Shown: positions 26,440 to 34,588 of the stretch, piece by piece
Numbering within the stretch: position 1 is the stretch's first letter
Layout of the letters: each line of letters begins with the position of its first letter
NCBI GenBank assembly: GCA_002050165.1
Contig: MWSW01000012.1
Coordinates: forward strand, 186,001-250,000
Reading direction: 5' to 3'
Origin: Candidatus Tepidiaquacellales bacterium OLB4/UTCHB1
Lineage (GTDB): Bacteria; Bacteroidota; Ignavibacteria; Tepidaquicellales; Tepidaquicellaceae
Length of the DNA: 64,000 bases
Notes under the pieces: model-generated
Told to the model about the DNA's origin: nothing
Seen by the model: only the letters and a program-made list of their open reading frames with translations
Database searches by the model: none
Program-made: the position numbers and the translations under genes

Positions 26440-27837
26440 TTATTCATCGCCCGAAAATCTTTTCTCTTCGACATCTTCCCTAACATTACCAAACATTTCA
26501 AGTACCATTTTATTATCGGATTCAGTATTATTCGAAATGTATTCCGGAGATTTTCTTAAAGCATGAACTTTTTCCTTTACATCAAGGGTTACTTCCTCTT
26601 TAGGTATTTTCTTTTGGAATTCATCCCTGAATTTCCTGATTGTCCATTTCACAGGCCAGGCTGCAGCATCTCCTAAAGCGCAAATAGTATTGCCCTCAAT
26701 ATTTTCTGCGACTGAAATAAGCTGGTCAAGGTCGCTCTGACGCCCTTTACCCTCATCAATGCGTTTGAGAACCCTGTACATCCAACCCGTCCCTTCGCGA
26801 CATGGTGTACACTGACCACATGATTCATGAAAATAGAAATGTGAAATCCTTATAAGTACTTTTATCAAATCTGTATCCTCATCCATTACCATTACACCTG
26901 CTGTCCCGATTGCAGACCCGATTTCTTTAAGGCTTTCATTATCCATCTTGATATTCATACACTCTTCGCGGGTTAACGGTGGCATCGAGGAACCTCCGGG
27001 AATTACCATTTTAATCTGCTTACCACCTTTAACACCACCGGCATAATCATTAATCAACTCCATCAAAGGAATACCCGTTGGGAGCTCGTAAACCCCGGGT
27101 TTATTCACGTGTCCGCTAACACCGAATAACAATGTCCCCGGATGTCTCGGATCACCGATTGAAGCGAACCACTCTCCCCCATTTTTTATAATTTCCGGTA
27201 CACAAGCCAAAGTTTCGATATTGTTAATTGTAGTTGGTTGACCCCAAACGCCTACCGCAGCTGGGAAAGGCGGTTTAACTCTTGGATATCCGCGCTTTCC
27301 TTCAAGGGAGTTCATCAATGCTGATTCTTCTCCGCAGATGTAAGCTCCGGCGCCTTTGTGTACATACATATCAGTGGAGAAATCTGAACCGAAAATATTT
27401 TTACCGATAAATCCCGCTTCATAAGCTTCTGCAACTGCTTTCTCCATTATGTTAATCCATTTCCAGTATTCACCTCTGATATAAACATAAGATGCAACGC
27501 AACCCATTGCGTAAGATGCGATAAGTGCACCTTCAATGAACTGGAATGGATTTCTTTCGAAAATTTCCCGATCTTTAAAACTCCCCGGTTCACTTTCATC
27601 ACCATTACAACAAAGATATTTCGGTTTTTCATTTCCTTTTGGCATGAAGCTCCACTTAAGGCCGGTCGGAAAACAAGCGCCACCCCTTCCTTTCAGATTA
27701 GATTTCTTTACTTCGTCAATTACCTGTTCGGGCGACATTGAAGTAACTACTTTCTTTAATGTCTCAAACCCGCCGTTTGACTTGTAAACTTCGAGCTTAT
27801 GAAGGTCAGGTATATCTTTTAAAATTACTTTCACCAT
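26440..27837 (-). CDS. nuoF: NADH-quinone oxidoreductase subunit F
   Basis: NADH-binding subunit of Complex I, holding FMN and cluster N3. Motifs: the glycine-rich FMN/NADH loop LKGRGGACFPTGLKWSFMPK (about 48-67), the NADH-site stretch CNGDESEPGSFKDRE, HKGAGAYICGEESALMNSLEG, and the [4Fe-4S] ligands in ESCGQCTPCREGTGWM (three Cys), plus NTICALGDAAAWP. At 465 residues it is slightly longer than usual because of a charged tail (EMFGNVREDVEEKRFSGDE). It is the last gene of nuoCDEF here. No nuoG follows; a terminator and an unrelated convergent gene do. Confidence 0.95.
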   Translation of the reverse strand: MVKVILKDIPDLHKLEVYKSNGGFETLKKVVTSMSPEQVIDEVKKSNLKGRGGACFPTGLKWSFMPKGNEKPKYLCCNGDESEPGSFKDREIFERNPFQFIEGALIASYAMGCVASYVYIRGEYWKWINIMEKAVAEAYEAGFIGKNIFGSDFSTDMYVHKGAGAYICGEESALMNSLEGKRGYPRVKPPFPAAVGVWGQPTTINNIETLACVPEIIKNGGEWFASIGDPRHPGTLLFGVSGHVNKPGVYELPTGIPLMELINDYAGGVKGGKQIKMVIPGGSSMPPLTREECMNIKMDNESLKEIGSAIGTAGVMVMDEDTDLIKVLIRISHFYFHESCGQCTPCREGTGWMYRVLKRIDEGKGRQSDLDQLISVAENIEGNTICALGDAAAWPVKWTIRKFRDEFQKKIPKEEVTLDVKEKVHALRKSPEYISNNTESDNKMVLEMFGNVREDVEEKRFSGDE

Positions 27838-27848
27838 TTTAAAAAACT

Positions 27849-28361
27849 TTAAATGTGTTTTGATTTCAGTTCATCCAACAGTGTATCAATCTTATCAAGC
27901 GAAAGGTTTTCGTGATACTCTCTGTTATTGACCTGCATCATTGGTGCAGTACCACAACTCCCCAAGCACTCAACTTCTTCAATAGTGAATATTCCATCTG
28001 TGGTCGTTTCCTTATTTTTTATTTTCAATTTATCTGATATATAATGAAAGATATCGTAAGCACCGTTGAGCATACAGGATACATTAGTACATATCTGGAG
28101 ATGTACTTTTCCGACAGGTTTTTCGTTATACATAGTGTAAAACGTAACAACACCGTAAACATGGTCAGGTGGTACATCAAGGAGACCAGCAACATACCGC
28201 ATTGCGTCTTTCGATATCCAGCCGTATTTGTCCTGGATCATCCAAAGCACCGGCAAAGTAGCCGCCATTTTATGCGGATACTTCTTTAAATGGTTATTGA
28301 CAATTTTCAATTCTTCTTCGTTGAAGAAATTGTCTTTCATTTCTTGATATGGAATAGACAT
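27849..28361 (-). CDS. nuoE: NADH-quinone oxidoreductase subunit E
   Basis: [2Fe-2S] (N1a) subunit of the NADH dehydrogenase module of Complex I. It has a helical N-terminal domain with the family stretch LPVLWMIQDKYGWIS and a thioredoxin-like C-terminal domain. The four cluster cysteines are C91 and C96 (QICTNVSCML) and C132 and C136 (VECLGSCGTAPMM). Length 170 residues, normal. It is separated by 11 bases from nuoF and 6 bases from nuoD. Confidence 0.95.
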   Translation of the reverse strand: MSIPYQEMKDNFFNEEELKIVNNHLKKYPHKMAATLPVLWMIQDKYGWISKDAMRYVAGLLDVPPDHVYGVVTFYTMYNEKPVGKVHLQICTNVSCMLNGAYDIFHYISDKLKIKNKETTTDGIFTIEEVECLGSCGTAPMMQVNNREYHENLSLDKIDTLLDELKSKHI

Positions 28362-28367
28362 AATAAA

Positions 28368-29633
28368 TTATTTATCAGCTTCACCCATCACAGGATCAAC
28401 ACTACCGATAATGACGACCGTATCTGAAATGAAACATCCTTTCATCATTTCCGGTAACCCCTGAAGATTTGAGAAGCTGGGACTTCTGATTTTCATACGG
28501 AACGGATAACCCGATCCATCACTGATTATATAAAAACCAAGCTCACCTTTCGATGATTCGATAGCACCGTACGATTCCCCTTTCGGCGGATTTATACCGA
28601 AATTAATTATCATGAAATCATTAATGAGCTCTTCCATCTTAGTGTAAACTTTTTGCTTTGCAGGCAAAACCTTCTTTGAATTCAACGCATTGTGCGGACC
28701 GGCAGGAATTTGTTCAATACATTGCTCTACGATTCTTGCCGATTGAATCATCTCTTCTACTCTTACATAATATCTTGCCAGAGCATCTGAATCATCATAC
28801 ACGGGAATATCAAAATTTAACCTGTCGTATATAAGATACGGATCATCCTTCCTGAGGTCCTGTTCAATCCCGGCAGCCCTTACCAGCGGACCGGTCAATC
28901 CGATATCTATAACCGCTTTGGGTTCAAGATATCCGATCCCTTCTGTTCTGATAATGAAAATTTTATTCCTTTCGACTAAGTCGCGGCATTCTTTAAGGTT
29001 CCCATAAAATTCTTTAATGAATTTTTTGATGCCATCAATTATTTCTTCGCTTATATCCTGTGCCGTACCGCCAATCCTTGTATATGTGTTGGTAAATCTG
29101 GCGCCACAGATTAAATCCCAAAGATCAAGAATTTTCTCACGCTCGCGGATAGCCCACAGGAACGGTGTTACAGCCCCGACATCCATGAGCAAAGCTCCGA
29201 TTGCAAGCAAATGCGATTGTATTCTCGCAAGTTCAGCAATTATGGTCCGGATGTACTTTGCACGATCCGGAATTTCCAGTTTTATGAGCTTTTCAACCGC
29301 TAATGTGTAGGCAACGTTATTTGCCATCGGTTGCAAATAATCCAGACGATCTGTGTGTGGAATAAACTCGTGAAAGGTTGATGCCTCGGCAAGTTTTTCA
29401 TAACCTCTGTGAAGATACCCTAACTCCGGAACGCATTTCATTACTGTCTCGCCGTCAAGACTTAGCAATAACCTCAGTACACCGTGTGTTGCGGGATGCT
29501 GCGGTCCCATGTTAAGTATCATCTCGTTGTCAAGAGAATCGCTAAACTGAACACTCAGATCATTGCTTTCAAGAGCTCTTAATATTTTTGATTTTATAAT
29601 CTCCGGTTGCCGGTCAATTATTGTATTAGACAT
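28368..29633 (-). CDS. nuoD: NADH-quinone oxidoreductase subunit D
   Basis: 49-kDa subunit of Complex I, forming the quinone-binding site with NuoB. Recognisable segments are MILNMGPQHPATHGVLRLLL (about 48-67), the HRGYEKLAE loop, YLQPMANNVAYTLAVEKL and the C-terminal IIGSVDPVMGEADK, which marks the Complex I D subunit. The protein is separate, not fused to NuoC as in E. coli. It lies 12 bases after nuoC. Confidence 0.95.
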   Translation of the reverse strand: MSNTIIDRQPEIIKSKILRALESNDLSVQFSDSLDNEMILNMGPQHPATHGVLRLLLSLDGETVMKCVPELGYLHRGYEKLAEASTFHEFIPHTDRLDYLQPMANNVAYTLAVEKLIKLEIPDRAKYIRTIIAELARIQSHLLAIGALLMDVGAVTPFLWAIREREKILDLWDLICGARFTNTYTRIGGTAQDISEEIIDGIKKFIKEFYGNLKECRDLVERNKIFIIRTEGIGYLEPKAVIDIGLTGPLVRAAGIEQDLRKDDPYLIYDRLNFDIPVYDDSDALARYYVRVEEMIQSARIVEQCIEQIPAGPHNALNSKKVLPAKQKVYTKMEELINDFMIINFGINPPKGESYGAIESSKGELGFYIISDGSGYPFRMKIRSPSFSNLQGLPEMMKGCFISDTVVIIGSVDPVMGEADK

Positions 29634-29645
29634 AATATAACTTCA

Positions 29646-30128
29646 TTATTTATTAGGTAACGGAAGTGAACCGGGAATTCCCATAAGTGGGAAATCCTTT
29701 CTTAACGGATGATACTCAAAATCCTCCGGCATGTACATTCTTCTTAAATCGGGGTGATCTGTAAACTCAACGCCGACCATATCATACGCTTCTCGCTCAT
29801 ACCAGTTAGCTGATCCCCAGATGGGAACAAGGCTCGGGGAATTCGGTTCATTTGCATCAACTTTAACTTTTATAAATAGTCTGTCCTTGTATCTTACTGA
29901 ACGCAAATTGTATATTACCTCAAAACGATCTTTCTTAGTAAACCTGTCAACGCCAATTGCATCAACAAGCTGATCAAATGACAGTTCATTGTCATTCTTT
30001 AAAATTTTACAAACTTCAAGAAGATTTTCTTTGGGAATTATTACGCCAGGGGTGCCGTTTACATCAATGAGTTCTATTTTAAATGAACTGAGTTTTGATT
30101 TTAATACTAAGATTCTTTCTTCGGTCAT
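29646..30128 (-). CDS. nuoC: NADH-quinone oxidoreductase subunit C
   Basis: 30-kDa subunit of the Complex I Q-module. The signature ANWYEREAYDMVGVEFTDHP, then LRRMYMPEDFEYHPLRKDFP, is intact near the C-terminus. The N-terminal half is more variable. Length 160 residues. It is the first gene of the nuoCDEF block and starts opposite a plus-strand T9SS gene, so this block needs its own promoter in the 330-base divergent gap. Confidence 0.93.
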   Translation of the reverse strand: MTEERILVLKSKLSSFKIELIDVNGTPGVIIPKENLLEVCKILKNDNELSFDQLVDAIGVDRFTKKDRFEVIYNLRSVRYKDRLFIKVKVDANEPNSPSLVPIWGSANWYEREAYDMVGVEFTDHPDLRRMYMPEDFEYHPLRKDFPLMGIPGSLPLPNK

Positions 30129-30458
30129 TTATAAATTTTTATCAAATTACTCAACGTCAGTTACATTTGAAATAACAAAATCAGTAAGTACTGAAATACA
30201 ATTGCTGAGATACTGAAATCATATTGGATTAATTATTTTTGCTTTGAGGAAGGTGAATTTGAAATTGGAACTTTTAAATCTTATAACGGTAAAACCTGCA
30301 TTGCATACTTTAAATCAAATTTCGAAAGTGAATAATGTTGCTGAAAAAAGATATATGCATCTCTCCAGCAAATTACAACATAAATATTTTCTCTGTGGAA
30401 TTATTATATAATTTGAGTAAATTTAAAATTCATTATTTAACCTAAACCAAAAACTAAA
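30129..30458. other. Divergent intergenic region between nuoC and a T9SS protein gene
   Basis: This 330-base AT-rich region must hold the promoters of nuoCDEF (leftward) and of the T9SS gene at 30459 (rightward). A TATAAT at 30407-30412 lies about 46 bases before the rightward ATG, without a recognisable -35. No coding sequence or terminator was found in it. Confidence 0.4.
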
Positions 30459-30935
30459 ATGAAAAAATTAAACACATTTTTGTTAGTACTTTTCCTCTGT
30501 GTAACAGGTTCAGTTTATTCTCAAACTCAAGAGGATATTTATAGAGAATCCAATCCTGAGGAGAATGTAGTTGATAACTCAACCAAGGCTCAGGAGTGGG
30601 CACAAATTGTTGAAGCCCGAAAATCAGGCAATGAAAACTATTATTTCGAACTACTGAACAATTACAGACAAAAATATGAAGGAGATTTTAAATCAGTTCG
30701 TAACCCATTTAACGGTCCTCAGGTTGTTCCGGTATCGAAATCACAAAATGCTCCTTTCAATCAGGACTGGATTGCTAATGGTGATAATATAGTATCGTAC
30801 GGCGGAGTACCAAATCCTGGTATCTTCGAGCGAAACCTCAGACTTAGAATAGATTCACTCGGGACACAGTATGTTGCCTATATCTCTACGAACAGAGATT
30901 CACTTGTAATTTACAGGTCAACGAATGGGGTGTAA
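30459..30935 (+). CDS. T9SS-exported protein, 5' part of a frameshifted gene
   Basis: The 158-residue product has a signal peptide (MKKLNTFLLVLFLCVTGSVYSQ) and then a polar region ending ...SLVIYRSTNGV before a TAA at 30933. The reading frame of the next gene, entered one base back at the GGGG tract (30927-30930), continues the sentence as STNG-GVNFEFFNLIVPGG, an Asp-box-like motif. The two parts are therefore one gene of about 590 codons broken by a one-base deletion in the G run, either real or from sequencing. No independent function is proposed. It lies inside the gap that separates nuoAB from nuoCDEF. Confidence 0.75.
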   Translation: MKKLNTFLLVLFLCVTGSVYSQTQEDIYRESNPEENVVDNSTKAQEWAQIVEARKSGNENYYFELLNNYRQKYEGDFKSVRNPFNGPQVVPVSKSQNAPFNQDWIANGDNIVSYGGVPNPGIFERNLRLRIDSLGTQYVAYISTNRDSLVIYRSTNGV

Positions 30936-30994
30936 ATTTTGAATTTTTTAATCTTATAGTTCCCGGTGGTTCTAACAAATGGCATTCATTCGAT

Positions 30995-32227
30995 ATGTTC
31001 ATAACCGACTCTACCGGTGGACACATATTAGGAATTGTTGCTTCAAGAACGCCGAATACTTCATCTTACGCCGGTGAGCTTTACTGGCTCTCTTTTAAGT
31101 CCAGTGGTAGCTTCTTAGGTGCTACTTTAATAACCCCTACAGAATCCGGTAGAGGTAACATTGAACCAAGTGTAATTTCTGATGGAAGGGATTGGTCAGT
31201 TAGTTTAACTTATTGGTACGTAGCCTTCAGAAATGTTGATGCTTCAACAGGTGTGGGTGATAGTGCTGTAACAAGTTATTCATCGAACTGGGGTCACGGT
31301 TGGAATCCCCCCCGAAAGATCAGATCCTTTGATGATTACGACCTAAGCATTAATTACAACTATGAATCAGATTCAATTTATGTCTTACTCACAAATTCCC
31401 TTACTCCTTCCAATCCAAATCTTCGGTTAATGAGGATTTACTTGGGAAACTTAGGTACCGGAACAAGTTGGACTCAATTTAATCCGGCAAATTCACCTGA
31501 TCCTGAAACTTTACCACAACTTGCAGTTAACAGAGAAGTCAATGAAATGGCTATAACTTACACAAGGGAAGAGAGCGGTCTTAAGAGAATATATTATAAC
31601 TATTACACTCCAGGTGGGACATACTGGAGTAACTCAGCGCCGGTTTTTGTCCAACCTGAAGCACAAAACGTTTCAACTTTGGATTGTAACATAGGACAAT
31701 GGGCATATAGACTTTGTTTTAGGGTAATCGGTGGCAACGATACAATTGTTTACATGAATTCCGGTAATATATCAACAGGATTCGTTGGAAGAACTCAAGT
31801 CAGCAATCATATGCCAACCGGTACTGTTGCTCCAGTAGTAGCCGGTTATACTGTTCCTTCAAACGGTGGAGCTGTTGTTTATGCTGGGTTCGGGGCAACT
31901 CCGATTTATTACGATAACTCAAGTATCGCAACCAACATAACAAGTAACGGTGAAATTGCACCGGCGAGTTTTAAACTCTCACAAAACTATCCGAATCCTT
32001 TTAACCCAACTACTAACATTAAATTTGACATCATCAACAAAGGAAATGTCAAGTTGGTTGTTTTCGATGCGACCGGAAGAGAAGTTACCACTTTAGTTAA
32101 TGATAATCTTGATCCGGGATCTTATGAGGTGAACTTCGATGCATCGAAACTTTCTTCAGGGGTTTATTTCTACAAACTTACCTCAGGAGAGTTTAGCGAT
32201 TTGAAGAAAATGGTGTTGGTAAAATAA
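30995..32227 (+). CDS. T9SS-exported protein, 3' part of the same frameshifted gene, with sorting domain
   Basis: This 410-residue frame carries the body and C-terminus of the interrupted protein. The first ATG is at 30995, but the frame is open back to 30929, directly at the frameshift, and lacks its own signal peptide. The body is beta-rich with no recognised enzymatic motif (for example SVSLTYWYVAFRNVDASTG, and MAITYTREESGLKRIYYNYY). The last 80 residues are a type A sorting domain: LSQNYPNPFNPTTNIKFDI ... SSGVYFYKLTSGEF ... KKMVLVK. A strong terminator follows. As sequenced, this part would not be exported. Confidence 0.8.
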   Translation: MFITDSTGGHILGIVASRTPNTSSYAGELYWLSFKSSGSFLGATLITPTESGRGNIEPSVISDGRDWSVSLTYWYVAFRNVDASTGVGDSAVTSYSSNWGHGWNPPRKIRSFDDYDLSINYNYESDSIYVLLTNSLTPSNPNLRLMRIYLGNLGTGTSWTQFNPANSPDPETLPQLAVNREVNEMAITYTREESGLKRIYYNYYTPGGTYWSNSAPVFVQPEAQNVSTLDCNIGQWAYRLCFRVIGGNDTIVYMNSGNISTGFVGRTQVSNHMPTGTVAPVVAGYTVPSNGGAVVYAGFGATPIYYDNSSIATNITSNGEIAPASFKLSQNYPNPFNPTTNIKFDIINKGNVKLVVFDATGREVTTLVNDNLDPGSYEVNFDASKLSSGVYFYKLTSGEFSDLKKMVLVK

Positions 32228-32252
32228 ACTTGTATCAGGTATTGCCTAATTT

Positions 32253-32286
32253 AAAGAGCCACCTCAATCTGAGGTGGCTCTTTTGT
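32253..32286 (+). terminator. Rho-independent terminator after the frameshifted T9SS gene
   Basis: AAAGAGCCACCTCA (32253-32266) pairs with TGAGGTGGCTCTTT (32270-32283) across a 3-base loop, followed by T-rich sequence. It is a long and very stable hairpin. Confidence 0.92.
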
Positions 32287-32539
32287 TTTTCGATTATAAT
32301 GTTGATGTGATTTTGAATTTGTCTGAGTGAATATATTCTATACTTGCGGACGTTTTTTTTGCTTTGTCGGAATATAAACTTTTGTCAACTTTCAATATTA
32401 TTATTCCCAATATAATTTAAGAAATCTTTTATCATGCCAGCACCTTTAGAGAAGTTGAATTTTTACGAACAATATGTTCATCACGATAGTTTATCTGTGT
32501 TAGGGTAAAACGTATTAAAAATACCAACAGAGGCAAAAC
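32287..32539. other. Intergenic region with a 24-codon frame
   Basis: AT-rich spacer between two terminators facing each other. It contains an ATG frame at 32434-32508 (MPAPLEKLNFYEQYVHHDSL plus four residues) preceded by TATAAT at 32411-32416. The short frame may be a remnant of a gene or chance. Nothing else is seen. Confidence 0.3.
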
Positions 32540-32572
32540 ATAAATAAAAAACCCCGGCTGAAACCGGGGTTA
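32540..32572 (-). terminator. Rho-independent terminator of the anchor-J protein gene
   Basis: Read on the minus strand, AACCCCGG pairs with CCGGGGTT across TTTCAG and continues into TTTTATTTAT. It lies about 30 bases beyond the stop codon of the minus-strand gene. Confidence 0.88.
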
Positions 32573-32602
32573 ACGAAAGGTCATTTACTAAACTTTCAAT
32601 TT

Positions 32603-33532
32603 CTACTTAACCAGAAGCATTTTCTTTGTTTCAACATAAGCATCGGCTTCAAGTCTGTAGAAGTATGTTCCACTCGCTAGAGTACTGCCATCAAACTCAG
32701 CCTCGTAATAACCGGCATTCAATACACCATCCTGAAGAACTTTAACAACCTGTCCAAGCGAATTGAAGATAGTCAGCTTAACGTTTGATGTTTTTGCAAT
32801 ATCAAACTTAATCCTGGTAGTTGGATTGAAAGGATTAGGATAGTTCTGCCCCAGAGCATATCGTTCAGGAATTTCAGATCCAATCGTATTAATTGAGGTT
32901 GGATCGCCTATATACACATCGTCAACGAAAACAAAGAAACCATCAACTGCGCAATCCATATAATATCTGAATGCTATATAAACCGGAGTACCGAATGCTA
33001 GCCCTGAAAGGTCAACAGTGTATTCCTGAAATTGCCCGTAAACTGATCCTGCTGGCCAAAATACAGATTGCAGGTACACAAAGTTTGATGGTATTGAGTC
33101 AATGAAACTTCCCCAAATCTGGATACTATCGGAATAACTAGCACTTCCACCCGAAGCCCAGAATTTTAAAATATAGTTGTTATTAACTCCTGTAATCTGA
33201 GGGGTAATCAGCCAGCAATCTGCGACTCCATCCCCACCTTGACCTGAAGTGTCAATACTCGCCCACCAGCTAACTCCAACTGACTTCGTTCCGTTATGCG
33301 ATTGTGTGAGAGCATTTGCCAATCCTGGGCAATATTCTCCGGAATCCCTTACAGTCCAGTTTACATCAGGATTTGCGCTGATTGGAAAAACTGCATTATT
33401 TACTTTGTGCCATCCAGGAGGTAGGATTGAGTCTGTGGTTTCAAAACCCTCTTCAATCGTCGTAATCTGAGCTTTTGAGTTTGTAAACACAAAAACCAGA
33501 ATAATAAAAAAAAGTAAAGTGAGTTTGTTCAT
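32603..33532 (-). CDS. Choice-of-anchor J domain protein with T9SS sorting domain
   Basis: A secreted, probably adhesive or carbohydrate-binding protein of 309 residues. The signal peptide is MNKLTLLFFIILVFVFTNSKAQ. The middle (about 28-212) is a jelly-roll-type cleaved-adhesin/choice-of-anchor J domain: EGFETTDSILPPGWHKVNN, ADCWLITPQITGVNNNYILKF, and DGFFVFVDDVYIGDP near its end. Residues about 225-309 form a type A sorting domain (LGQNYPNPFNPTTRIKF ... ASGTYFYRLEA ... KKMLLVK). It lies downstream of nuoAB on the same strand after about 200 bases and has its own terminator. Confidence 0.87.
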   Translation of the reverse strand: MNKLTLLFFIILVFVFTNSKAQITTIEEGFETTDSILPPGWHKVNNAVFPISANPDVNWTVRDSGEYCPGLANALTQSHNGTKSVGVSWWASIDTSGQGGDGVADCWLITPQITGVNNNYILKFWASGGSASYSDSIQIWGSFIDSIPSNFVYLQSVFWPAGSVYGQFQEYTVDLSGLAFGTPVYIAFRYYMDCAVDGFFVFVDDVYIGDPTSINTIGSEIPERYALGQNYPNPFNPTTRIKFDIAKTSNVKLTIFNSLGQVVKVLQDGVLNAGYYEAEFDGSTLASGTYFYRLEADAYVETKKMLLVK

Positions 33533-33740
33533 TTTTTATTTGTTTAATTTATAAGGAATATTTCGGTTGTTTTTTGCCTATAAACTAAATACATCACATT
33601 GACTTTTTTTTAAATGAAATACAATTTACTTCGCAAAACTTTCTGATGTAAGATATAAAATATTTATGGTTAAATTAAATGCTAAAAATTAAATACCCAG
33701 AGTTACTTATTATGGGTTAAAACGATGCGAATTGTTTAAT

Positions 33741-34229
33741 TTAGTTTGAAGAGAATTTGATAAATTTTTCTTTTTCCACTTTATTCTGAATTTTGATTAA
33801 CGCATTTAAAAGGTTGTCAGGTCGGGGAGGACAACCAGCAACATAAGCGTCAACCGGGAGAAATTGGTCAATTCCCTGCACAACCGAGTAACTTCTATAC
33901 ATCCCGCCACTCGATGTACAAGCGCCCATCGCGATCACCCATTTCGGGTCGGGCATCTGGTCGTAAATCTTTCGCACCACGTGAGACATTTTATACGTAA
34001 CAGTACCAGCAACAATCATAACATCAGCCTGCCTCGGCGAAAATCTCATTACTTCCATACCAAATCGTGATATATCGAATCTCGGTCCTGCTACGGCCAT
34101 CATTTCAATTGCACAACACGAAATACCCATAGGCATTGGCCAAAGTGCATTTTTTCTTGACCAGTTTACTAACTCTTCAATCTTGGTAGTAAAGAAGCTT
34201 TCAGATGAAAGTTTTTCCTCTAATCCCAT
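33741..34229 (-). CDS. nuoB: NADH-quinone oxidoreductase subunit B
   Basis: Holds cluster N2, the last iron-sulphur centre before quinone, in the Complex I Q-module. The four ligands are C38, C39 ([10 protein letters not shown]), C104 ([11 protein letters not shown]) and C133 ([14 protein letters not shown]). Residues [20 protein letters not shown] are family-typical. Length 162. It overlaps nuoA by 10 bases and follows AAAAGGAG-like sequence. Its usual partner nuoC is not next but 3.6 kb away. Confidence 0.95.
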
Positions 34230-34588
34230 TTTAATACTCCTTTTTTGTATTCATAAATTAACCCTACAGCAAGTACTACGATAAAAATTAATCCGATTAC
34301 AAACGAATAAATCATCTCCGGTTTAGGAAAGTTCAGAAAAGAGACCGCCCAGGGATAAAGAAATACAACTTCAATATCAAACACAATGAAACTAACAGCT
34401 ACCATATAGTATTTTATGGAAAACCTGTCGTGGGCAGTGCCAATCGGTTCCATACCGCTTTCATAAGTAGATAACTTTTCTTTATTGGGACGATTAGGCC
34501 CAAGTAAACTTGATAGATTTATGTTTAGAAACGCAAATGCAGCTGAGATAAAAATTATAATAAAGATTGGAATATAACCTTCAAGCAT
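34220..34588 (-). CDS. nuoA: NADH-quinone oxidoreductase subunit A
   Basis: Small membrane subunit at the junction of the Q and proton-pumping modules of Complex I. The 122 residues form three helices (about 5-25, 60-85 and 92-112). The conserved loop [22 protein letters not shown] corresponds to the family's YECG loop, with Ser where most homologues have Cys. It is followed by the signature [12 protein letters not shown]. It is first in nuoAB and overlaps nuoB by 10 bases. Confidence 0.93.

What the first reader, a model, noticed from the sequence alone, without database searches (positions are those of the whole stretch)
30129..33740. Complex I operon split between nuoB and nuoC by T9SS protein genes
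Seen: nuoA-nuoB (overlapping) and nuoC-D-E-F (gaps of 6-12 bases) are on the same strand but separated by 3.6 kb with an opposite-strand, frameshifted T9SS gene, a same-strand anchor-J gene and two terminators. No nuoG-N follows nuoF. Established: nuoA-F order is usually continuous. Inference: an insertion or rearrangement placed surface-protein genes inside the operon, leaving nuoCDEF dependent on a promoter in 30129-30458.
Basis: partly seen in the sequence, partly recalled or inferred. Interest (0 to 1): 0.5.

Follow-up and report, generated by a model that had tools for sequence, protein, structure and literature searches.

The report
Swapping surface adhesin inside complex I operon
In one family of Ignavibacteria-related bacteria a surface-adhesin gene sits inside the respiratory complex I gene row, and its binding half has been swapped between two very different forms while its export tail stayed put.

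Summary
In detail: nuoAB and nuoCDEF lie on one strand, 3.6 kb apart, with a same-strand T9SS choice-of-anchor-J gene (anchJ), an opposite-strand two-frame T9SS gene and two terminators between; nuoG, H, K-L, M and N lie elsewhere. "Recent insertion" fits only the opposite-strand gene, seen at no relative's nuo locus that I fetched. anchJ is at the nuo site in 22 of 27 family genomes with this nuo set (12 of 15 genera), in 14 of them between nuoB and nuoC. In the class sample 16 of 24 other families keep nuoB-nuoC together, so the insertion is old but family-level.

The unexpected part: the anchJ N-terminal domain (cleaved-adhesin/MAM-like fold) has two deep forms, A and B (about 33% identical). 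Either occurs at this site, even within a genus, while the T9SS tail stays resident (G003/G006: domain 33%, tail 95%). Tail data reject grouping by A/B; domain data reject grouping by family. The sister family shows the same alternation at another fixed site. This is exchange of a surface domain on a resident sorting tail, resembling published Porphyromonas allelic exchange, here across genera and two families. Function and recombination route are inferred.

The parts
34220..34588 (-). nuoA
   Evidence: Pfam PF00507, 7.7e-35
33741..34229 (-). nuoB, last gene before the insertion
   Evidence: NCBIfam NF011390 (PRK14815.1) 1.2e-84, over its cut-off
32603..33532 (-). anchJ: 309-aa protein with choice-of-anchor-J domain and T9SS type A tail; N-domain type A
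   Evidence: choice_anch_J 3.6e-18, T9SS type A tail 1.5e-11; fold matches gingipain K2/K1/K3 at Z 15.3/15.0/14.2, tied with meprin MAM domains; type A in the domain tree
32897..33466 (-). exchangeable N-terminal domain (about residues 23-212)
   Evidence: 29-36% aa identity in the A/B pairs compared at the same site
32606..32890 (-). linker and T9SS sorting tail (about residues 215-309; QNYPNPF begins at residue 229, base 32848)
   Evidence: tail 70% identical to the B-type G026 gene at the same site, domain 36%; against G007 only 55% and 34%; tail tree follows family, not A/B
32550..32571 (-). intrinsic terminator behind anchJ
   Evidence: a comparable hairpin with T-run follows anchJ in 17 of 19 genomes tested (own script, no shuffle control)
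30459..32227 (+). T9SS gene in two frames (158-aa piece without a recognised family, 410-aa piece with T9SS tail), probably a lineage-specific addition
   Evidence: no relative of its non-tail parts among the loci held
32253..32283 (+). intrinsic terminator of the + strand T9SS gene
30129..30458 (.). divergent intergenic stretch that should hold a start for nuoCDEF if transcription stops after anchJ
   Evidence: position only; no promoter above chance
26440..30128 (-). nuoC-nuoD-nuoE-nuoF unit

Best explanation
Three things lie on top of one another. (1) Shown by comparison: within this family's ancestry a gene for a ~310-aa surface protein (signal peptide, cleaved-adhesin/MAM-like domain, T9SS type A tail) came to lie next to nuoB; with the terminator behind it, nuoA-F became two units, nuoAB-anchJ and nuoCDEF (the unit boundary is inferred from terminators). 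(2) In the window's lineage a second T9SS gene was added on the opposite strand and is now in two frames (its absence at relatives' nuo loci is shown, its age inferred). (3) Shown by sequence: the anchJ N-terminal domain exists in two deep forms, A and B, that have been exchanged repeatedly relative to the resident T9SS tail at a fixed site (nuo site in family f1, rfaD-p939 site in sister family f2). Inferred: exchange by homologous recombination with incoming DNA, using the conserved tail and flanks as arms, perhaps through a tandem intermediate as in G024; the two forms differ in surface binding or recognition and are kept by selection for variety. The tie to complex I is most likely positional, because f2 shows the same exchange away from nuo.
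For: anchJ at the nuo site in 22 of 27 genomes, 12 of 15 genera (21 beside nuoAB, and G027 on nuoC's side with nuoB off the contig). In a search with the window's domain alone a genome had 1-5 matches, and the nuo-site gene was the best one in 21 of those 22 (not G016). nuoB-anchJ spacing of 10-41 bases in 11 genomes; hairpin with T-run after anchJ in 17 of 19 tested. Outside f1 nuoB-nuoC within 400 bases in 94 of 133. Domain tree: A and B one split, support 100; f2 as one clade rejected, p-AU 5e-57. Tail tree: f1/f2 one split, support 100; type A as one clade rejected, p-AU 3e-7; A/B needs 10 changes against 10.4 in shuffles. Same-site pairs: G003/G006 domain 33%, tail 95%, downstream DNA 83%; G053/G073 33%, 89%, upstream DNA 84%; identity jumps at the linker. 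Control: tails at other loci of the same genome are 38-60% identical (12 pairs). A/B labels are no more clustered on flank-gene trees than shuffles: f1 5 changes against 5.3, f2 3 against 3.9.
Against: Five of 27 genomes (G008, G009, G010, G021, G023) have nuoB and nuoC close together without anchJ; in G021 they overlap by 4 bases, much as on outside contigs, so the insertion may be younger than the family's base, have happened twice, or been cleanly undone; deep nodes of the nuo tree are weak (41, 81). Sister family f2 has nuoB and nuoC apart in 8 of 8 genomes with both in view, so the ancestral state of the order is not settled. Flank identity is not high in every A/B pair: G053/G073 downstream DNA 50%, G002/G005 54% up and 59% down. 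The window's own tail is only 55% identical to that of G007, within the range of unrelated-locus tails. No population data: exchange is seen between species, never caught within one. Nothing tests binding or expression. Most relatives are draft assemblies. G024 holds both forms in tandem, as the rival model wants.
Confidence: 0.7

Rival explanations
1. An ancestral tandem pair A-B stood at the site; each lineage lost one copy at random and gene conversion kept the tails alike.
For: G024 carries nuoB-A-B-nuoC with tails 85% and domains 34% identical.
Against: 1 of 22 f1 genomes and 0 of 11 f2 genomes show both forms at the site, yet A/B differ between close sisters such as G003/G006 and G043/G073, so the tandem would have had to persist until very lately in many lineages; f2 B forms fall in three places among f1 B forms, which suggests transfer anyway.
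Confidence: 0.2
2. A recent insertion or rearrangement of surface-protein genes into one genome's operon.
For: The non-tail parts of the + strand two-frame gene match nothing in the relatives' loci fetched.
Against: anchJ is at the same site in 22 of 27 genomes.
Confidence: 0.04
3. anchJ is a functional partner of complex I, kept in the operon for co-expression.
For: Tight same-strand spacing in 11 genomes; anchJ stays by nuoAB where nuoCDEF is elsewhere (7 genomes).
Against: Its signal-peptide-like start and T9SS tail point outside the cell; sister family f2 keeps it away from nuo; five family genomes lack it at nuo; in G007, G026 and G020 a terminator-like hairpin separates it from nuoB.
Confidence: 0.03
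4. A/B alternation is an assembly or binning artefact of draft genomes joining unrelated T9SS genes through similar tails.
For: Several contigs end or hold N at or near this gene (G175, G179, G020, G027).
Against: A and B both occur in assemblies of few contigs (G043: 2, G007: 4, G015: 8, G073: 10) with the flanking genes on both sides, and tails of other loci are only 38-60% alike.
Confidence: 0.03

Closest known systems
Porphyromonas gingivalis domain rearrangement and allelic exchange of surface proteins (Kgp catalytic and adhesin-domain variants, FimA, RagAB and others; PMC5266723, abstract and passages seen)
   Same: T9SS-linked surface proteins among them; cleaved-adhesin domain variants; variants form a mosaic not related to the SNP phylogeny
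   Different: There among strains of one host-associated species; here among genera and two families, with two deep forms of the whole N-domain on a resident tail, in uncultured relatives of Ignavibacteria
Cleaved adhesin / gingipain K domains (PF07675; PDB 3km5, 4itc, 3m1h) and InhA-like MAM domains (PF20773)
   Same: Fold (K2/K1/K3 Z 15.3/15.0/14.2); sequence: 3m1h_A 2.3e-08 and 4itc_A 3.3e-08 with the profile; PF07675 in 7 and PF20773 in 9 of 13 members at E up to 1
   Different: One stand-alone domain plus tail, not part of a protease polyprotein; the window protein is under the PF07675 cut-off; meprin MAM domains tie with the K domains in Z; ligand unknown
Dispersed 14-subunit nuo set of Ignavibacterium album-like genomes (PMC6338057, passages seen)
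   Different: An adhesin gene between nuoB and nuoC is not mentioned in the passages seen
Melioribacter roseus ndh clusters (PMC3534657, passages seen)
   Same: A block ndhABCDEF whose G, H and I lie at another locus
   Different: The gene numbers given (Mros0160-0155) imply six consecutive genes A-F, with J-N a little apart

Membership tests
T9SS type A cargo | C-terminal type A sorting domain | tested here: met
   TIGR04183 44.1 bits against cut-off 23, 1.5e-11; PF18962 3.9e-10
T9SS type A cargo | Export and surface attachment shown | not testable with these tools
   needs an experiment
Choice-of-anchor J domain | NF038128 over cut-off | tested here: met
   66.3 bits against 30
Cleaved adhesin (PF07675) | Pfam gathering score | tested here: not met
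   window domain 18.2 bits against 21.4; the fold agrees, so it resembles one but is filed as choice-of-anchor J
Complex I nuoA-F block | Six subunits in order and on one strand | tested here: met
   with the B-C interruption
Allelic domain exchange at a fixed locus | Domain phylogeny conflicts with tail and flank phylogeny | tested here: met
   AU tests on quick trees, identity along pairs, shuffled labels. The A/B labels were read off domain trees, so the A/B split there is by construction; the tail test is the independent one
Allelic domain exchange at a fixed locus | Both forms among strains of one species | not tested
   the genomes searched are one per species
Phase-variable inversion switch | Silent alternative copy and inverted repeats beside the gene | not tested
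   no repeat or invertase scan was made; 1 of 22 f1 sites holds both forms, in tandem

The most novel reading that the evidence does not exclude
The site carries a two-form surface recognition gene whose forms A and B are older than the split of two families and are kept side by side by balancing selection (phage, grazer or partner choice), passing between genera by recombination at the shared sorting tail; in one family it has settled inside the complex I gene row, whose conserved flanks serve as landing arms.
Probability: 0.3. Interest if true: 0.72.

Novelty: new variant of a known kind. Interest (0 to 1): 0.5.

Why it matters
It shows that an apparently broken respiratory operon can be an old landing site for a modular surface gene, and gives a natural system (same site, same tail, two domain forms) for asking how free-living bacteria vary what T9SS displays. 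It also warns that T9SS genes annotated by their tails can hide domain exchange, and that tail-based and domain-based trees of one gene can disagree completely.

Tried and rejected
Promoter search: sigma-70-like sites equal shuffles (17 found, mean 17.7) and a Bacteroidota-type pattern equals chance (38 in the window, mean 40.9), so no promoter is claimed; that pattern is recalled from memory.

Terminators in relatives: one search used my own script without a shuffle control. The tool's scan finds the same hairpin after anchJ in G015, G018 and G013, but its totals there are 1, 4 and 2 against shuffled means of 1.4, 1.6 and 1.3, so only the repeated position, not the number, carries weight.

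Functional link of anchJ to complex I: rejected as main reading because sister family f2 keeps anchJ away from nuo.

Genome-wide homogenising of T9SS tails as cause of the tail pattern: rejected by same-genome tails at other loci (38-60% in 12 pairs; 40-56% against other T9SS genes in the loci checked).

A third form in the f2 genomes without a match at E <= 1e-40 (G063, G174, G175, G177): not resolved; G175's contig begins at rfaD and the other three show no close rfaD.

Relatives of the + strand gene's non-tail parts: none among the loci held; not searched in whole genomes. nuoI and nuoJ were not searched for.

Literature: searches listed no title or abstract start about an adhesin gene in a nuo operon or T9SS domain exchange between genera; only open-licence papers are held, lists were capped, and only PMC5266723, PMC3534657 and PMC6338057 were opened (passages).

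Trees: searches (IQ-TREE, 41 rows; FastTree, 51 domains) gave the same A/B split for the site genes. The AU tests use the site rows only (34 domains, 32 tails; tails of G179 and G027 dropped because cut or masked) and quick trees; G006 and G016 are long rows in the domain tree. In one search only 19 candidates per genome were scored where the first look found more, so anchJ counts outside f1 are lower bounds.
Full report
OBSERVATION. The gene list of the finding is right. nuoA and nuoB overlap; nuoC, D, E and F follow on the same strand after a gap of about 3.6 kb. The gap holds a same-strand choice-of-anchor-J gene with a T9SS type A tail (32603-33532, here anchJ), a + strand T9SS gene in two frames (30459-30935 and 30995-32227) and two convincing terminators. 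The genome (G000, 2.42 Mb, 19 contigs) has one nuoB and one nuoC match. nuoG (C16, about 60 kb), nuoH (C16, about 38 kb), nuoK-nuoL (C13), nuoM (C12) and nuoN (C8, about 123 kb) stand apart (K, L, M, N named from my reading of the proteins and the PF00361 hits). nuoI and nuoJ were not searched for. Such dispersal is in print for Ignavibacterium album-like genomes (PMC6338057, passage).

RELATIVES. The 29 genomes held of the family, the window's included, were searched with NuoC and NuoB. Two (G001, G022) show only a second, distant complex I set, leaving 27. In 22 of the 27 an anchJ gene is at the nuo site (12 of 15 genera): in 14 between nuoB and nuoC on the same strand; in G027 upstream of nuoC with nuoB off the contig; and in 7 (G002-G006, G011, G028) beside nuoAB although nuoCDEF lies elsewhere. 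In G003 and G006 it is divergent, upstream of nuoA; in G004 another gene lies between. Five (G008, G009, G010, G021, G023) have nuoB and nuoC close together without it. In a search with the window's domain alone the nuo-site gene was the best match in 21 of the 22 genomes (not G016). The non-tail parts of the + strand gene matched nothing among the loci held.

WIDER VIEW. In a class sample of 159 genomes (25 families), 133 of 145 non-family genomes had both genes in view: 94 with nuoB and nuoC within 400 bases, 33 on different contigs, 3 far apart on one contig (two of them on opposite strands), 3 (family f11) with 743-2086 bases between. By family, 16 of 24 keep them together and 8 do not, the sister family f2 among the 8. 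So the split arose more than once in the class, while contiguity is the common state. Matches of the specific small anchJ family (E <= 1e-50) were found in the window's family f1, in f2 and in one f13 genome (candidates capped at 19 per genome). Of the named contigs outside the family read, ten (L111, L115-L120, L126, L130, L132) have nuoC directly after nuoB and seven (L121-L125, L127, L128) do not; L129 and L131 could not be judged.

TRANSCRIPTION UNITS. nuoB and anchJ are 10-41 bases apart with no terminator-like hairpin in 11 genomes. A hairpin with T-run follows anchJ before nuoC in 12 of 14 genomes with that order (not G016, G024) and follows anchJ in 5 of 5 tested where nuoC is elsewhere (own script, no shuffle control; searches find the same hairpin in four of these genomes). 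G007, G026 and G020 also have one between nuoB and anchJ. The likely arrangement is nuoAB-anchJ as one unit and nuoCDEF as another; in the window the 208-base nuoB-anchJ gap leaves open whether anchJ has its own start. No promoter rises above chance.

TWO FORMS AT ONE SITE. The domain tree of the 34 site genes falls into two clades, A and B, with full support. In f1 6 genomes have A (the window among them), 15 have B, and G024 has both in tandem. In f2 anchJ stands at another fixed site, beside an rfaD-like gene and a 939-aa protein (one of the two neighbours is cut off by a contig end in some, and extra T9SS genes intervene in G082 and G176): A in 6, B in 5 of the 11 genomes with a match, out of 15 searched. 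The tail tree ignores A/B (10 changes; shuffled mean 10.4; type A as one clade rejected, p-AU 3e-7) and splits cleanly by family; the domain tree rejects f2 as one clade (p-AU 5e-57). On trees of the flanking genes A/B is no more clustered than shuffled labels (f1 5 changes against 5.3; f2 3 against 3.9). Close pairs show the joint directly: G003 and G006 share tails at 95% and downstream DNA at 83% but domains at 33%; G053 and G073 share tails at 89% and upstream DNA at 84%, domains 33%, although their downstream DNA is only 50% alike. Identity jumps within the linker before the QNYPNPF motif. For the window itself the tail is 70% identical to B-type G026 but only 55% to B-type G007. Tails of other loci in the same genomes are 38-60% identical, and 40-56% to other T9SS genes in the loci checked, so tails are not homogenised genome-wide.

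WHAT THE DOMAIN IS. The best structural matches are gingipain K domains (3km5 Z 15.3, rmsd 2.8, 160 aligned; 4itc Z 15.0, 2.9, 156; 3m1h Z 14.2, 3.2, 161), tied within 1 Z with MAM domains of meprins, other MAM and Eph domains following. A profile of 13 domains finds 3m1h_A at 2.3e-08 and 4itc_A at 3.3e-08; single members match PF20773 (InhA-like MAM; 9 of 13) and PF07675 (cleaved adhesin; 7 of 13) at E up to 1. So a surface adhesin-like role is reasonable, but a fold shows no function.

READING. Shown: anatomy, old insertion, hairpins after anchJ, mosaic genes. Inferred: homologous recombination through tail and flanks (G024's tandem could be an intermediate), selection for variety, and mere co-location with complex I. 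The strongest rival is an ancestral tandem with differential loss; it needs the tandem to have lasted until very late in many lineages though it is seen once in 33 site genomes. The closest precedent is domain and allelic exchange of surface proteins within Porphyromonas gingivalis (PMC5266723, abstract and passages). The searches listed no paper on the present case; they cover open-licence papers only.

Noticed in passing
L035:5310-6626 and L035:8036-8713; L064:6263-7582: Genus g15 has a further ~438-aa gene between anchJ and nuoC, and in G026 an opposite-strand 225-aa gene between nuoB and anchJ: the gap keeps gathering genes.
   Followed up: no
L047:7598-7969, L053:3851-4222, L055:8704-9075, L059:1785-2156: In four g3 genomes a 123-aa protein gene sits between nuoE and nuoF, a second interruption of the same gene row.
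   Followed up: no
L225, L233, L239, L240 (f2); L199, L200 (f1): A second, B-like anchJ branch lies beside a ~740-aa T9SS gene in f2 and beside a ~517-aa 'RRDFIKT' T9SS gene in f1, mostly with a ~476-aa protein close by.
   Followed up: partly
L203-L206, L208: In five genomes of five genera a ~544-aa 'RRDFLK'-type protein is followed by a ~300-aa anchor-J protein with T9SS tail, another conserved pair.
   Followed up: no
L033:6014-8827: Upstream of the lone nuoH of the window's genome lies a 937-aa T9SS protein that also carries an anchor-J-like domain, with one gene between.
   Followed up: no
L229:3920-4858 (G167, family f13): One distant-family genome holds an anchJ (E 1.3e-57) near form A; transfer or contamination, not resolved.
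   Followed up: no
G175:C2 start, L238 start, L049/L067, L064: Several contigs end, or hold N, at or near the anchJ gene, as one would see if strains in a sample differ there; equally a plain assembly effect.
   Followed up: no
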